64,000 nt of DNA from Desulfitobacterium dehalogenans ATCC 51507 (GTDB taxonomy: Bacteria > Bacillota > Desulfitobacteriia > Desulfitobacteriales > Desulfitobacteriaceae): positions 4,092,001 through 4,156,000 of the forward strand of contig NC_018017.1 in the NCBI RefSeq assembly GCF_000243155.2. Direction: 5' to 3'. How positions within the stretch are numbered: position 1 is the first letter of the stretch; each line of letters starts with the position of its first letter. Below, one piece after another: positions 9,617 through 33,771 of this stretch. The translations under genes and the position numbers were made by a program. The notes under the pieces are model-generated. The model was not told the origin of the DNA and did no database searches. It saw only the letters and a program-made list of their open reading frames with translations.

Positions 9617-9856
9617 CACCGCTCAAACCCGAAATGCAGCCCAAGGATTTTGCTTTCAGGCAGAGAACGGATTTAAGCGAGCAGGCAAGCAATCTTCGCG
9701 AAAGACTGCAGCGGAGTCAGGTTGGAAACAGGACGTTTCCAACCGGCTATGAGGCAGGAGCCGATTTAGCCGGGGACCTGACGCAGCGGAAGCCTTGAGC
9801 GATTAGATTGCTCCGCGCAGCTTATGGAGTGAACGCCTAAAGCAAAATCCTGGAGA
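9617..9856 (+). repeat. Structured repeat, copy A1 (between gpmI and eno)
   Basis: A copy of an unrecognised family. The ends pair: AGGATTTTGCTTT (9644-9656) with AAAGCAAAATCCT (9839-9851). Inside are AGCAATCT / AGATTGCT (9688, 9805), GTCAGGT / ACCTGAC (9716, 9776), hairpin TTGGAAAC-AGGAC-GTTTCCAA (9722-9742), and hairpin CCGGCT / AGCCGG (9743, 9768). The first 27 bases are a leader shared with copy A2. It lies antisense to the glycolytic transcript. The short open frame across it (9538-9798) is not a gene. It fills nearly all of the 334-bp gap. Confidence 0.9.
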
Positions 9857-21477: not shown

Positions 21478-22779
21478 ATGATGAGAATTTTACGTAGAGG
21501 GTCCAGAGGAAACGATGTTGCCGAAGTCCAGGTCCGTTTAAGTGAGCTGGGATACATACCCGGACCCATCGATGGAACCTTTGGCGCTAAGACAGAGGCA
21601 GCTGTAATCCGCTTTCAGAGGGACAGGGGATTGACCCCTGATGGGATCGTAGGCCCCCTTACTTACAATGTTCTCTTCCAGCCTGTTCCACAACCAGACT
21701 ACGTCCCTTATACCATTAAAGCCGGCGATACTCTTTACAAGCTTTCACTGATCTATGGAGTATCGGTAGATGAGCTCTTTGCCGCCAACCCTGGTGTCGA
21801 CCCCTACCAATTGCGCATCGGCCAACAAATCGTAATACCCAAAAGACCCGGAAGACGACATACTTTTTCAGCTTGGATTCCTTATTGGGTACAACAGGAG
21901 GCCATGGCTGTAGTACGCCAGCATGCTGAACTTTTCACAACTCTTTCTCCCTTCTGGTATGAACTCACCCCAACAGGAGATTTGCTCCTTTATCCTAATG
22001 GCGAAGACTCTGCATTGATTGAATTCACACTCTCTCGAGGGATCGAGCTTATACCTTTAATCGCCAATAATTATGATCAACAACTGATCTCCACTGTATT
22101 GAACAACCCCACCATCCGTCAACGCCATGTTACCCAAATCGTTAATAAAGTTCTTTCCATGAATTATGCCGGAATCGAGATCGATTACGAAAATATTGCA
22201 GTCACTGATCGAGATCTTTTTGTCCTTTTCCTAAGAGAGCTCAAAACAGCTCTGGTACCCTATAACAAAAAGCTATACGTAGCCATTCAAGCGAAGACCT
22301 ATGCCGACGAGCCGGTCAGCGCCGGCCATGATTATTTGGGGATTGGGAGTATTGTAGATGTTGTTCGCCTCATGCTCTATGATTATAGCTGGGATACTCC
22401 CGGCTCTATTGCCCCAGTCGGCTGGATTCAGGAAGTCCTTGACTATGCGGTGACCGTTATCCCTAGCTCAAAACTGGAAGCCGGTTTGCCTACTTACGGT
22501 TATGATTGGGGAACCACCAGGAGAGGTGTTACCTATGACGCAGCAATCCGTCTAGCCCAGCAATACGGGGCTCAGATTATTCAGGATCCCCAAGGGGGTC
22601 CTCACTTCAGCTATATTGATGCTGATGAAATAGTCCACGAAGTCTGGTTTATCAATGCAATTTACTTTGCTACCTTCGTGGATATCGTCAATCAGTATAA
22701 TATTCGAGGAATATCCATCTGGTATCCCGGTGGAGATGATCCTCAGATTTACACCGTGATTCGGGACCGGCTGATGTAA
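21478..22779 (+). CDS. Peptidoglycan-binding / LysM / GH18 glycoside hydrolase
   Basis: 433 residues in three parts. A peptidoglycan-binding domain (about 1-65) has RRGSRGNDVAEVQVRLSELG and IDGTFGAKTEAAVIRFQ. A LysM domain (about 78-122) has YTIKAGDTLYKLSLIYGVS. A GH18 barrel makes up the rest, with the catalytic DxxDxDxE-type region as YAGIEIDYENI (Glu near 240). It resembles spore cortex-lytic or coat-associated YaaH/SleL-type N-acetylglucosaminidases. It has no signal peptide, which fits spore proteins made in the mother cell. Two tandem ATGs (21478, 21481) follow GAGGTG. Confidence 0.92.
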   Translation: MMRILRRGSRGNDVAEVQVRLSELGYIPGPIDGTFGAKTEAAVIRFQRDRGLTPDGIVGPLTYNVLFQPVPQPDYVPYTIKAGDTLYKLSLIYGVSVDELFAANPGVDPYQLRIGQQIVIPKRPGRRHTFSAWIPYWVQQEAMAVVRQHAELFTTLSPFWYELTPTGDLLLYPNGEDSALIEFTLSRGIELIPLIANNYDQQLISTVLNNPTIRQRHVTQIVNKVLSMNYAGIEIDYENIAVTDRDLFVLFLRELKTALVPYNKKLYVAIQAKTYADEPVSAGHDYLGIGSIVDVVRLMLYDYSWDTPGSIAPVGWIQEVLDYAVTVIPSSKLEAGLPTYGYDWGTTRRGVTYDAAIRLAQQYGAQIIQDPQGGPHFSYIDADEIVHEVWFINAIYFATFVDIVNQYNIRGISIWYPGGDDPQIYTVIRDRLM

Positions 22780-22804
22780 TGTATATAAAAGACTGTATAA
22801 AAAT

Positions 22805-23035
22805 AAAAAAGCGTTTACTCGGGTCGCGTAGCTTTACGCACATCGCTCACTCCATAGCTCCAGGGCTGGTCCACTCGCTTTCTTAACAGCTCCGCCAAAC
22901 CTTTGGGTAATACCTGATGTAAACCGGTGGCTCCGCAACGTTAAGAAAGCATCGTTAACCCGACCGCCCCTCCGCTAAATCCGTTCGCTCCTGTGCGTAA
23001 AGCTACGCTTGCGGGTCCCTTTTCAGCGCTTTTTT
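22805..23035 (-). repeat. Structured repeat, divergent copy B
   Basis: A divergent member of the same family, minus orientation. Terminal stem AAAAAAGCG / CGCTTTTTT (22805, 23027), then a 17-bp perfect stem GCGTAGCTTTACGCACA / TGTGCGTAAAGCTACGC (22826, 22992), then an 11-bp perfect stem GCTTTCTTAAC / GTTAAGAAAGC (22877, 22940). Stem sequences are unlike copies A1-A4. The unpaired blocks match: on the minus strand, GAGCGAACGGATTTAGCG and GCTATGGAGTGAGCG correspond to the A-copy blocks. The gap 22780-23499 holds this copy, A2 and two plain hairpins. Confidence 0.85.
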
Positions 23036-23095
23036 GGGGCTTTTGCTACTCTCTTTCAGGTCTTTTTCAGGGCAGGTTGTCTTGGTCGGGTAGCT

Positions 23096-23337
23096 GCACT
23101 GCTCAGACCCGAAAGACAGCCCAAGGGTTTTGCTTTAAGGCAGAGAACGGATTCTAAGCGAGCAGGTAAGCAATCTTCGCGAAAAGACTGCAGCAGAGTC
23201 GGGTTGGAAACAGGAAGTTTCCAACCGGCCATTGAGCAGGAGCGATTTGGCCGGGAACCCGACACAGCGGAAGTCTTGAGCGATTAGATTGCTCCGCGCA
23301 GCTTATGGAGTGAACGCCGAAAGCAAAATCCTGGAGA
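23096..23337 (+). repeat. Structured repeat, copy A2
   Basis: Same layout as A1. The 5' end has AGGGTTTTGCTTT, which pairs with AAAGCAAAATCCT through one G-U. The GTCGGGT / ACCCGAC stem replaces GTCAGGT / ACCTGAC of A1, and CCGGCC / GGCCGG replaces CCGGCT / AGCCGG. It sits about 60 bases from copy B, head to head with it. Confidence 0.9.
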
Positions 23338-23354
23338 ATCAGCTTCCGGGGCTT

Positions 23355-23395
23355 TTTCAGAGTAGGGTAAGAAACGACCTTATCCTACTCTGAAA
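23355..23395. terminator. Strong hairpin downstream of copy A2
   Basis: A 17-bp stem (TTTCAGAGTAGGGTAAG / CTTATCCTACTCTGAAA) with one mismatch or wobble and a 7-base loop. There is no clear T-run on either side, so termination is uncertain. Confidence 0.45.
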
Positions 23396-23437
23396 GTGGA
23401 TAAGGCCGCCTTTTTTAATGATGATACAGACAAACGC

Positions 23438-23478
23438 AGGGCTGTGATAAAACCATTAGCAAGTTTTAACACAGCCCT
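23438..23478 (-). terminator. Intrinsic terminator after the deacetylase gene
   Basis: Stem AGGGCTGTGATAAAAC / GTTTTAACACAGCCCT, 16 positions with one mismatch and a 9-base loop, followed on the minus strand by GCGTTTG. It lies 22 bases past the stop at 23500. Confidence 0.8.
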
Positions 23479-23499
23479 TTCCTGAGTTGATCCTAAACC

Positions 23500-24576
23500 C
23501 TAATCGTGAAACCCTCCTGGGAAGAGAATGGGGGCAACCTCAGGGGATAGTACTCCGAACTCATAGCCTTGCTCCTTGAGAAAACGAATAATCTTCGGCA
23601 AGGCATCCACTGTCGTCCATTTGCCCGGAGCGTCGTGCATCAAAAGAATAATTCGGTCTCTACCAGGGACTTGTTCTTTGACATTCCTAATAATAGTCTC
23701 CGCAGACACCAGAGGTGCCGATGCATCCCCTGTACTTACATTCCAGTCATAAACTAAATAATCCAGCGCATCCACTGCGTTATAGTAACTGATATGAAAA
23801 TTTCCGTGGGTTCCCCCCGGAGTACGGATCACCTTGGGGCGAACACCAATAAGTTGGTAAATTAAATCTTCGTTCTTTTTCAGGTTAGCTACAAATGCCT
23901 CTGGACTTTTGTAGATTTCACTGTAATTATGAGAATAAGTATGATTGCCAATAGCATTGCCTTGTTCATAGGCCTTTTTGAGCAACTCAGGGTATCTTTC
24001 GACCTGGCTCCCGATAACAAAGAAGGTAGCGTTAACCCCTTCCCTCTTGAGTACTTCCAAGATAGGGGCTGTATTTTCCGAGGGTCCGTCGTCGATGGTT
24101 AAATAAACAATTTTCGAAGGTTCTTCTTTAAATACACGATGCTTCATAGCTAAGCCCGGAGCAGTGGGAGGTGTGCCGGATAATTCATAAAATGTACGAA
24201 CCGGGGTCCCTGGAGGAGCCGGTTCCGGAGACATATTCGCCGGACTCTCTTGAGAATTTTGCGCAGGAGGAATTTCTATAAAAACGGGATCATCGGTCCC
24301 TTCTTCATTGGTGTTGGAATTTTCGTTACCCTCTTTTATGAGGTCATCCTTTTCTTCATAAATGGGGTTTTCTGCAGTGTTGCCATCGCCCTGAGAGCTT
24401 TCTTCCGGAGATTTATCTTGTCCTCCTGTACCTTGCTTATTCTCTTGAGCCATATGAAATCCTTTGAACGTTTTGAAGGATTCTAAGGAGAGCGAACTGC
24501 ACCCCACTAAAGCGAGGGCCCCTATAATAAGTAATGTTAGCCCGAATCTTCTCCATACTCTGCTGTCTTTTTTCAT
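23500..24576 (-). CDS. Polysaccharide deacetylase lipoprotein (NodB domain)
   Basis: 358 residues. Lipobox ALVGC near residue 26. A low-complexity linker rich in Glu, Asn, Gly and Ser spans about 40-120. The NodB homology domain follows: motif 1 TIDDGPSENT (about 157), motif 2 NHTYSH (about 212), motif 3 RTPGGTHG (about 248), and a late LLMHDAPG. Members remove N-acetyl groups from peptidoglycan or other GlcNAc polymers. Start ATG at 24576 after AGAGGCG. Monocistronic. Confidence 0.93.
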   Translation of the reverse strand: MKKDSRVWRRFGLTLLIIGALALVGCSSLSLESFKTFKGFHMAQENKQGTGGQDKSPEESSQGDGNTAENPIYEEKDDLIKEGNENSNTNEEGTDDPVFIEIPPAQNSQESPANMSPEPAPPGTPVRTFYELSGTPPTAPGLAMKHRVFKEEPSKIVYLTIDDGPSENTAPILEVLKREGVNATFFVIGSQVERYPELLKKAYEQGNAIGNHTYSHNYSEIYKSPEAFVANLKKNEDLIYQLIGVRPKVIRTPGGTHGNFHISYYNAVDALDYLVYDWNVSTGDASAPLVSAETIIRNVKEQVPGRDRIILLMHDAPGKWTTVDALPKIIRFLKEQGYEFGVLSPEVAPILFPGGFHD

Positions 24577-24886: not shown

Positions 24887-26821
24887 ATGACATTTGAGAA
24901 GAAAGCAACAAGTATCTTCTTAACATTCACCATTTTTTTTGCTTTAGTTTTTCCCGGGCTAACCTATGCAAGCACAGCACCAACAGTGAATCGATTGGCT
25001 GGCCAAGACAGGTATGAAACGGCAGCAACCATTGCCAAGCAATGGTCACATTCAGACTATGCGATTCTTGTCTCCGGCGAAAACTATCCGGATGCACTGG
25101 CAAGTGCACCCCTGGCCCCAAAACATAATGCACCGATCCTATTAACTACTTCAGATAGTTTGCCGACACCCACTAAACAGGCTTTAGCCGATTTAGAGGT
25201 GAACCAGGTCATCATCGTTGGCGGAACCGGAGTTATTGCACCTTCTATTGAAGCAGAACTGCAAGCCATGGGAATCTCTACAACCCGGCTTGCCGGTCAG
25301 AACCGGTATGAGACCGCTCTAAAAATTGCCGACCAAGTTCAAAACTCACCGTCCCAATTGTTCGTTTGCACCGGTGATGATTTTGCGGATGCTCTTTCTG
25401 TGGCACCCATTGCGGCAATCGAACAGATTCCGATTCTTTTAGTTTCCGGCGACTCTTTAGCAAACTCTGTCCAAGAATATCTTGATTTAAATTCGGCTCA
25501 TATCACGAAAACCTATGTAATTGGCTATTCAGATGTTATTAGCGACAAGGTCGCCAGTCAATTTCCTAATGTTGAGCGTATCGTCGGGGCTGATAAATAT
25601 GCCAGAAATATCGCTGTCAACGAAAAATTCAATAACTTATTCAGTACAGGAGCCATTTGTATTGCCAGTGGAGAGGGATTTGCCGACGCTCTTTCCGGCT
25701 CTGCACTGGCAGCCAAAAAATCCGAGCCGATTATTCTCGTCAATAACGCTACTCCTGATACGACGAAAAAGTATTATCAACAACGATTGGTGAACTTAGA
25801 TCATCTCACTGTGTTTGGCGGAACAGGGATCGTTCCGGATAAGGTCATGCAGGATTTAAAGCCCCCTGCTGATTTACCGGTGGGAATCAGACTGGATAAA
25901 ACCTTTATAACTCTGACCAAGGGACAAAGTGAATCTCTGACAGCTATACTGGATATGTCGTCAGGTTCAGTTGAAGGAACCGGCAATGAGCTTGTTTGGC
26001 TGTCCAGCAATCCGACTGTGGCTACGGTGAGCCAGGGAAAAGTTGAGGGTATGGGTTATGGATCAGCCCATATTACGGTAAAAACAAAAGACGGCAGCCA
26101 AGCCTCTTGCCTTGTTGCTGTGGATTCACCAACTAAAAAATATAGAACGATGAATTTGAGCAACTACACAAAAACCGGAACAAATACCGCTACTTTTAAA
26201 TATCAACTGCTTGATGAGACAGGTAAAGATATTACCGCGGAAATTCCAGCCTCTCAATTACGTGCAACTTCTACCCTAAGCTCATCTATTTCTTTAGATC
26301 CAAGTCAAGGGATAGGAACCATAACCTTTAAGTCTTCTTCAGATACGGGCAAACCCATTACCATTATACTCCTTGACGGAGCGAGTGGTTCAGCAGTGAG
26401 CCTCGACTCAACTTCAAACGCAGGTTCCTCCAGTTACACTTATCCCGTCGGTATTCCCCAACCTGAATTGCCGCCCCCAAACCCCGACCAGAAAATTAGT
26501 GAAATCAAGATCACTTCAACAAAACTGGGCATAGCTTGGAGCGATGGCATCAGTAACGACATGGGTTATGCAACCTATATTGTAAAGGATCAAAATGGCC
26601 GTGATATTACCAACTCATCTCTTGCCAATAATCTAAAGGCTACCAGTGATGTGGGTATTGCTGCCACAGCCTACAAGGGCCTGCTGAAAGTGGATTTCGG
26701 TCCGAATCTGGATGCTTACTCCCTGACCGGGGTTACAGTAACGATTACCGATCCCCAAAGCGGCGTGACGGGCACGGCGACCTTAGAAATTACTCCGCAG
26801 ATTCGCGTCATATCGCCTTAA
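24887..26821 (+). CDS. Cell-wall-binding repeat (CWB2) surface protein with Ig-like domain
   Basis: 644 residues. A signal peptide (residues 1-28, ending TYASTA) precedes three CWB2 repeats (about 32-315), each starting with a RLAGQDRYETA-type block or its variant and containing an FADALS or YPDALA block and a VIIVGGTGVI block. Residues about 330-420 look like a bacterial Ig-like (Big_2) domain (ITLTKGQSESLTAIL, VTVKTKDG-like). The remainder is beta-rich. CWB2 repeats anchor surface proteins to the secondary wall polymer. Single gene, own promoter and terminator. Confidence 0.92.
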   Translation: MTFEKKATSIFLTFTIFFALVFPGLTYASTAPTVNRLAGQDRYETAATIAKQWSHSDYAILVSGENYPDALASAPLAPKHNAPILLTTSDSLPTPTKQALADLEVNQVIIVGGTGVIAPSIEAELQAMGISTTRLAGQNRYETALKIADQVQNSPSQLFVCTGDDFADALSVAPIAAIEQIPILLVSGDSLANSVQEYLDLNSAHITKTYVIGYSDVISDKVASQFPNVERIVGADKYARNIAVNEKFNNLFSTGAICIASGEGFADALSGSALAAKKSEPIILVNNATPDTTKKYYQQRLVNLDHLTVFGGTGIVPDKVMQDLKPPADLPVGIRLDKTFITLTKGQSESLTAILDMSSGSVEGTGNELVWLSSNPTVATVSQGKVEGMGYGSAHITVKTKDGSQASCLVAVDSPTKKYRTMNLSNYTKTGTNTATFKYQLLDETGKDITAEIPASQLRATSTLSSSISLDPSQGIGTITFKSSSDTGKPITIILLDGASGSAVSLDSTSNAGSSSYTYPVGIPQPELPPPNPDQKISEIKITSTKLGIAWSDGISNDMGYATYIVKDQNGRDITNSSLANNLKATSDVGIAATAYKGLLKVDFGPNLDAYSLTGVTVTITDPQSGVTGTATLEITPQIRVISP

Positions 26822-33091: not shown

Positions 33092-33309
33092 TCTCCAGGA
33101 TTTTGCTTTCGGCGTTCACTCCATAAGCTGCGCGGAGCAATCTAATCGCTCAAGTCCTCCGCTACGTCGGGTGCCCGGCTAAATCGGCTCCTGCCTCATA
33201 GCCGGTTGGAAACGTCCTGTTTCCAACCCGACTCCGCTGCAGACTTTTCACGAAGATTGCTTACCTGCTCGCTTAAATCCGTTCTCTGCCTTAAAACAAA
33301 ATCCTTGGG
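33092..33309 (-). repeat. Structured repeat, copy A3 (uvrB-uvrA gap)
   Basis: Minus orientation. The terminal stem keeps a U-G pair (TTTTGTTTT opposite AAAGCAAAA). It carries AGCAATCT-type and GTCGGGT / ACCCGAC stems and CCGGCT / AGCCGG. A leader resembling CTGAAAAGACCCC precedes the 5' end at 33310-33345. The gap 33022-33800 holds this copy, copy A4, and 243 bp between them with nothing I can assign. Confidence 0.9.
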
Positions 33310-33552
33310 GGGGTTCTGGGGTCTTTTCAGGAGCAGCTCTGAAGAAAAAGTTAACAGCTATCCTTAGGGGCTTCGTCCTGAGAGTTCACATAATAGGTGT
33401 TTACCCATTGGCCCATTCAAGTCAAGGAACGGCAAACCAATCTCCGTGGTTCGAGAATGAAACGATATAAGAGCTTAGACCAGTATTACTGATTTTAAGA
33501 ATGACCATAACACTGATGCATTAAAGAATACTTTAAACGCCTTAAGATTCAA

Positions 33553-33771
33553 CCCAAGGATTTTGCATTACAAAAGTGAGCGCCTTCAAAGCGAGCAGGA
33601 TGCCAAACTTCGCGAAAAGCTAGCAGCGGAGAAAGGTTGGAAACAGGACGTTTCCAACCGGCCATTGAGCAGGAGCGATTTGGCCGGGTACCTTTCGGAG
33701 CGGAGAGCTTGAGCGTTAGTTTTGCACCGCGCAGCTTTCTGAGCGAACGGTATAACGCAAAATCCTGGAGA
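33553..33771 (+). repeat. Structured repeat, copy A4 (uvrB-uvrA gap)
   Basis: The most diverged of the A copies. Paired changes keep the fold: GAAAGGT / ACCTTTC replaces GTCAGGT / ACCTGAC; GCCAAACT / AGTTTTGC replaces AGCAATCT / AGATTGCT with one mismatch; AAGCT / AGCTT replaces AAGACT / AGTCTT. The hairpin TTGGAAAC-AGGAC-GTTTCCAA is unchanged. Head to head with copy A3. Confidence 0.9.

What the first reader, a model, noticed from the sequence alone, without database searches (positions are those of the whole stretch)
22805..23035. Divergent copy with replaced stems but conserved loop blocks
The copy at 22805-23035 has 9-, 17- and 11-bp perfect stems unrelated in sequence to the A copies. 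Yet on its minus strand the unpaired blocks GAGCGAACGGATTTAGCG and GCTATGGAGTGAGCG match GAGAACGGATTTAAGCG and GCTTATGGAGTGAACG. GCGGAG also occurs on both sides of its inner stem, as in the A copies. Keeping the loops while stems diverge suggests the loops bind something.
Basis: partly seen in the sequence, partly recalled or inferred. Interest (0 to 1): 0.8.

Follow-up and report, generated by a model that had tools for sequence, protein, structure and literature searches.

The report
Mobile intergenic repeat with RNA-like fold
The stretch is one arm of a scattered, gene-free DNA repeat that sits between genes in dozens of copies across a whole class of anaerobic bacteria, comes and goes between related species, and is kept folding into one long hairpin on one strand, although what copies it is unknown.

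Summary
The 17-, 11- and 9-bp stems and both loop blocks are where stated, and the A/B resemblance is real: a model built only from A arms recognises B arms on the same sense strand (E about 1e-6 to 1e-7). B is not one odd copy of A. It is one of about 70 B arms in this 4.32-Mb genome. At least 44 of them lie 50-300 bp from an A arm in inverted orientation, forming a roughly 560-bp composite that fills intergenic gaps. B-type arms occur in 43 of 46 genomes of the family and 58 of 83 of the class. All stems covary (27 of 34 pairs changed on both sides). G-U exceeds A-C pairs on the window's minus strand (148:26; 56:4 within this genome), and mutation bias does not explain it. At least 10 of 18 composites are absent from the orthologous site of a sister species, so the element is mobile or at least gained and lost. 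The sequence-conserved part is the hairpin apex; the other 'kept loops' are mostly GNA/GNA and GA/GA internal loops, no more conserved than stems. Y1 transposases and reverse transcriptases are absent from some copy-rich genomes. No Rfam match, no published description found. Best reading: a REP/REPIN-like non-autonomous mobile element recognised as a folded single strand, mobiliser unknown.

The parts
22805..23035 (-). B arm of the composite repeat; sense (folding) strand is the window minus strand; core rod matched by model R1 at 22842-22997
   Evidence: covariation; G-U/A-C asymmetry
22992..23008 (-). 17-bp outer stem, 5' side on the sense strand (partner 22826-22842)
22826..22842 (-). 17-bp outer stem, 3' side on the sense strand
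22973..22990 (-). loop block GAGCGAACGGATTTAGCG (5' side)
   Evidence: aligned across genera
22844..22858 (-). loop block GCTATGGAGTGAGCG (3' side)
22940..22950 (-). 11-bp inner stem, 5' side (partner 22877-22887); all 11 pairs covary
22877..22887 (-). 11-bp inner stem, 3' side
22895..22925 (-). apex with the most conserved sequence: GGTTTACATCAGGTATTACCCAAAGGTTTGG
23036..23104 (.). spacer between the two inverted arms; in other copies it carries a further small hairpin module
23105..23337 (+). A arm (rod 23124-23334), sense on the plus strand, so the two arms' sense strands point outward from the spacer
   Evidence: covariation
9627..9856 (+). solo A arm elsewhere in the window
33092..33309 (-). 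A arm, left member of an A/A inverted pair
33550..33771 (+). divergent A arm, right member of the same inverted pair

Best explanation
B is the left arm of a non-coding, non-autonomous mobile intergenic element. The element is an inverted pair of homologous but divergent hairpin 'rods' (B on the minus strand, A on the plus strand) around a short spacer; in other genera a single rod is often the unit. SHOWN: dispersed multicopy, intergenic, gained or lost at orthologous sites, and one strand of each B rod selected to fold. INFERRED: copies spread through a single-stranded intermediate (ssDNA or RNA) in which a trans-acting enzyme recognises the rod and its conserved apex. Stems are free to change as long as they pair, G-A internal loops keep the rod continuous, and insertion is tolerated mainly behind stop codons. 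The enzyme is not identified; it is not consistently a Y1/RAYT transposase or a reverse transcriptase.
For: Copies: 70 R1 matches in the genome; at least 44 pair with an A arm 46-302 bp away in inverted orientation. The same inverted layout, (-) arm then (+) arm, recurs with diverged partners in Desulfosporosinus-type genomes. Mobility: of 18 composites checked against sister species G002, 10 sites are empty with 37 bp or less between the flanks and 4 are occupied. One composite is also absent in outgroup G003, and one shared by G000 and G002 is absent in G003, both implying insertion. Fold: 104 B arms have 96.6% of cells paired (35-42% when slid) and 27/34 pairs with two-sided change, above all 500 shuffles; A arms 97.7% and 45/61. 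Strand: G-U:A-C 148:26 overall, 56:4 within this genome; loop positions show no matching mutation bias. Distribution: 43/46 family, 58/83 class, 8/299 of a phylum sample. Placement: no rod inside a gene; 3 of 51 between divergent genes; no orientation preference, 22 ++ vs 17 --.
Against: No consistent target-site duplication: only L019 has a suggestive 6-bp repeat at the junctions. No sharp conserved termini. No autonomous copy carrying a gene was found. No mobiliser correlates: Y1 transposase is absent from G046, G009, G003, G018 and G074-G078, which carry 8-64+ copies, and abundant in G059, which has none; RVT_1 is absent from G075, G076 and G078 with 29, 11 and 20 copies. A arms lack a clear strand bias in their pairs (41:17 on A5, 27:19 on A3). 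Some genomes keep only one or two copies (G026, G028), which fits a retained function as well as a relic. Loss by deletion is not excluded for most empty sites.
Confidence: 0.6

Rival explanations
1. A functional structured RNA element: the rods are transcribed as 3' UTR or free RNAs and bind a protein or ligand; high copy number reflects recruitment to many genes.
For: Strand-specific, RNA-like covariation; class-wide conserved apex; rods lie close behind stop codons.
Against: No orientation bias relative to the upstream gene (22 ++ vs 17 --). Ten of 18 sites empty in a sister species. No promoter-like site in 22700-23500 apart from one well downstream at 23421-23450, and few terminator stems (4 of 40 A copies). 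Two arms in opposite orientation cannot both be sense in one transcript.
Confidence: 0.2
2. A retroelement-like (bacterial SINE-like) repeat copied through RNA by a reverse transcriptase in trans.
For: RNA-like G-U/A-C asymmetry; modular insertion of extra hairpins in loops; most genomes carry RVT_1 genes.
Against: Three genomes with 29, 11 and 20 copies have no RVT_1 match; no poly-A or other retro signature; no consistent target-site duplication.
Confidence: 0.12
3. A REP/REPIN-type element moved by a RAYT (Y1) transposase.
For: Inverted doublets of hairpins, intergenic, avoiding divergent promoters, non-autonomous; the REPIN layout (PMC3116915) is the nearest analogue.
Against: Y1_Tnp absent in several copy-rich genomes; the Y1 genes examined have no rod within their 1.5-kb flanks; arms are about 200 nt, against 20-40 bp for REPs (PMC3733652).
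Confidence: 0.05
4. A DNA-level site (cruciform, nucleoid or supercoiling site) with no single-strand intermediate.
For: Long near-palindromes between genes; roughly even spread along the chromosome (KS p = 0.11).
Against: A double-stranded cruciform constrains both strands alike; the B arms show G-U >> A-C on one strand (56:4 within the genome).
Confidence: 0.05

Closest known systems
REPINs / BIMEs (REP doublets moved by RAYT)
   Same: High-copy, non-coding, intergenic, hairpin-forming doublets in inverted orientation; rare between divergent genes; presence varies between related strains; single-strand structure under selection.
   Different: Arms of about 200 nt with many internal loops instead of 20-40-bp palindromes; no required Y1 transposase; one fold conserved over a bacterial class and beyond; conserved apex rather than a conserved terminal tag.
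Bacterial MITEs and RU/ERIC/BOX-type intergenic repeats (e.g. RU-1, RU-2, RU-3, PMC2759123; bcr1 listed in PMC2267715)
   Same: Short non-coding mobile units of 100-600 bp in intergenic regions, modular, folding.
   Different: No sharp terminal inverted repeats or consistent target-site duplications found; deep compensatory covariation and far wider taxonomic span.
Large structured bacterial ncRNAs (Rfam families; GOLLD, ROOL, OLE as in PMC12286853)
   Same: Large covarying structure with conserved loops.
   Different: Tens of dispersed copies, insertion polymorphism, no dedicated genomic context; no Rfam match at gathering threshold, and none meaningful at E<=10.

Membership tests
REP/REPIN (RAYT-mobilised) | High-copy intergenic palindromic units arranged as inverted doublets | tested here: met
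REP/REPIN (RAYT-mobilised) | Unit is a short palindrome of about 20-40 bp (PMC3733652) | tested here: not met
   Arms are about 155-230 nt of continuous covarying rod
REP/REPIN (RAYT-mobilised) | Genome encodes a Y1 (RAYT) transposase, usually flanked by the repeats | tested here: not met
   No PF01797 match in G046, G009, G003, G018, G074-G078 despite 8-64+ copies; no rods by the Y1 genes examined
MITE | Non-coding, insertion polymorphic | tested here: met
MITE | Precise terminal inverted repeats and a constant-length target-site duplication | tested here: not met
   Ends vary; only one of ten clean sites has a plausible 6-bp duplication at the junction
MITE | Parent transposon with the same ends in the genome | tested here: inconclusive
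Rfam structured RNA families | Match to a covariance model | tested here: not met
Functional ncRNA | Transcribed and accumulates as a defined RNA | not testable with these tools
   No RNA-seq; no promoter evidence
Reverse-transcriptase-mobilised element | A reverse transcriptase available in every genome with active copies | tested here: inconclusive
   No RVT_1 match in copy-bearing G075, G076, G078, but whether copies are active there is unknown

The most novel reading that the evidence does not exclude
A class-wide family of mobile genetic elements that consist only of large structured single-strand 'rods', usually arranged as outward-facing inverted pairs, moved by a so far unknown enzyme that reads folded DNA or RNA through a conserved apex: a new mobilisation system distinct from RAYT/REP and from reverse transcription.
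Probability: 0.3. Interest if true: 0.85.

Novelty: new variant of a known kind. Interest (0 to 1): 0.62.

Why it matters
These elements make up an estimated 1% of this genome (about 70 B arms plus A arms), are spread over a class of anaerobes that includes organohalide and sulfate reducers, and have no Rfam entry and no description in the literature library searched. They offer a natural experiment in which stems turn over while folding, internal-loop geometry and a short apex are held, with polarised insertions between sister species. If the mobiliser is new, it would be a non-RAYT, non-RT route for spreading structured repeats. If it is not, the family is still an unannotated structural repeat that would mislead non-coding RNA searches in these genomes.

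Tried and rejected
RAYT/Y1 association: rejected. Reverse transcriptase as a universal mobiliser: rejected. Intrinsic terminator role: an outer stem directly followed by a T-run in only 4 of 40 A copies. Promoter inside the spacer: none. Chromosomal or replichore orientation bias: not significant (Fisher p = 0.21). A rod cluster around a 7-kb block in G008 looked like a mobile element but encloses a glutamate-mutase/methylaspartate operon. Phage or plasmid origin: no match. Plain consensus-to-consensus alignment of A and B was weak (45 of 2000 shuffles as good); the covariance model settled homology. Literature: no description found. First regular expression for A arms failed and was corrected.

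Full report
OBSERVATION. The minus strand of 22795-23045 folds at -100.6 kcal/mol, z = -6.1. Both halves of B match the corresponding halves of A copies jointly as well as observed in only 2-9 of 3000 dinucleotide shuffles. More decisively, a covariance model made from A arms alone (R2) finds B arms over the full model on the expected strand at E about 1e-7 to 2e-6. E-values from the short calibration are rough. Conversely the B model (R1) listed no A arm of the window's genome. So A and B are homologous but far diverged.

WHAT IT IS. The window is G000:C1:4092001-4156000 of a 4,321,753-bp single-contig genome. From memory, that size fits Desulfitobacterium dehalogenans; named Desulfosporosinus and Paradesulfitobacterium genomes carry the apex exactly, which agrees with the family. 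R1 finds 70 matches at E <= 6e-7, 69 of them full length, in the genome. A arms are similarly numerous. At least 44 of 70 B arms lie 46-302 bp from an A arm, always B-minus then A-plus, i.e. an inverted pair whose sense strands point outward. The consensus of 34 copies shows one composite of about 560 bp with sharply higher identity than its flanks. In the window the composite spans about 22805-23337, between a LysM/glycosyl-hydrolase-18 gene (21478-22779, +) and a polysaccharide deacetylase gene (23500-24576, -). A second window locus (33092-33309 minus, 33550-33771 plus) is an A/A inverted pair with the same geometry.

DISTRIBUTION. R1 hits 43 of 46 genomes of the family and 58 of 83 of the class, with copy numbers from 0 to more than 65. 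In a phylum-wide sample of 299 genomes only 8 are hit, 7 of them in the class, so the model is specific. The eighth, G285, has five copies with a recognisable variant of the apex (GGTTCACATGCAGTAAGCCCAGAGGTTTTGG). No match was found in plasmid or phage records or viral contigs. Inverted pairs with a more diverged partner recur in other genera (L167, L180, L221, L225, L230, L237, L239; and A-type pairs in L211, L214, L215, L216). In several genomes a single rod of about 230 nt is the common unit.

STRUCTURE UNDER SELECTION. On 104 B arms from six genomes plus one further locus, 96.6% of cells pair, against 35-42% when partners are slid by 1-3 columns. 27 of 34 pairs have two-sided changes and 691 cells carry them, exceeding all shuffles. 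A arms behave alike: 45 of 61 pairs, 97.7%. The alignments were fitted to the models, but an independent MAFFT alignment with RNAalifold gave 25 of 39 pairs with compensatory change. Strand test: G-U pairs exceed A-C pairs 148:26 on the B sense strand, 77:13 on the MAFFT alignment, and 56:4 among 30 copies of this genome. Unpaired positions show no matching bias of C>T and A>G over G>A and T>C, so this is not a mutational artefact. One strand of B, as RNA or ssDNA, is therefore what selection sees. A is less clear (41:17 on A5; 27:19 on A3).

LOOPS. The apex is the conserved part (0.870 against 0.757 for paired columns). Other unpaired columns are no more conserved than paired ones (0.767, p = 0.5). 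From established knowledge such loops stack as sheared G-A pairs, so structural need can explain them without a bound partner. The apex is the better candidate for recognition.

MOBILITY AND PLACEMENT. Left flanks of 18 composites all map to sister species G002. Ten of the orthologous sites are empty with 0-37 bp between flanks, four are clearly occupied, and the rest are remnants or unclear. For L002 both G002 and outgroup G003 lack it; for L020, G000 and G002 have it and G003 lacks it: two polarised insertions. No constant target-site duplication was found. Of 33 composites or arms here only one lies between divergent genes. Of 51 rods in four other genomes 3 do, none lies inside a gene, and rod orientation is balanced (22 ++, 17 --). 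This fits tolerated insertion away from promoters and argues against a strand-specific 3'-UTR role. Occupied orthologous sites sometimes carry whole stem cassettes exchanged on both sides (L010 against L194), suggesting gene conversion or replacement between copies.

MECHANISM. Shown: mobile or at least gained/lost, non-coding, folded-strand selection. Inferred: spread through a folded single strand read by an enzyme in trans. The two obvious enzymes fail as general answers: Y1 transposases are missing in G046, G009, G003, G018 and G074-G078, and reverse transcriptases in G075, G076 and G078; all carry copies. They might still act in some lineages, or copies may be relics there.

COMPARISON. 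It works like a REPIN or BIME (inverted hairpin doublet, non-autonomous, intergenic) but is not filed as one, because unit size and the Y1 partner were tested and not met. It is not an Rfam RNA. No paper in the held library describes it; that library lacks most subscription journals, so prior description is not excluded. I rate it a new variant of a known kind.

Noticed in passing
window 33092-33309 (-) and 33550-33771 (+): Inverted pair of two A-type arms, one strongly diverged: the same outward-facing geometry as B/A but with A on both sides.
   Followed up: partly
L010 vs L194, L008 vs L193: At sites occupied in both sister species, whole stem cassettes differ on both sides of the rod at once, as if replaced by gene conversion from another copy.
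   Followed up: partly
L003 spacer (also seen in other composites): The spacer contains a third module, a 16-bp palindrome TTTTTCATCATCTGCC...GGCAGATGATGAAAA, next to a truncated rod stub; similar TTTTCATCCTCTG tails follow rods in Desulfosporosinus.
   Followed up: partly
G285 (loci L279-L283): Five rods with a recognisable variant of the apex motif in a genome from another class of the phylum, hinting at a much wider or horizontally moved family.
   Followed up: partly
G026 and G028 (L290, L291): Nearly identical rods with near-identical close flanks in two genomes of another family of the order that carry only one or two copies, which looks like long-term retention at one site.
   Followed up: no
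L186 (G008:C15:67682-77474): Two tandem B rods on each side of a glutamate-mutase/methylaspartate ammonia-lyase operon, all in the same orientation and with duplicated intergenic flanks.
   Followed up: partly
L019: Only clean insertion site with a suggestive 6-bp direct repeat (AGTAGG) flanking the composite.
   Followed up: partly
window 24887-26821: Large cell-wall-binding (CWB2) and Ig-like domain protein gene near the element.
   Followed up: no
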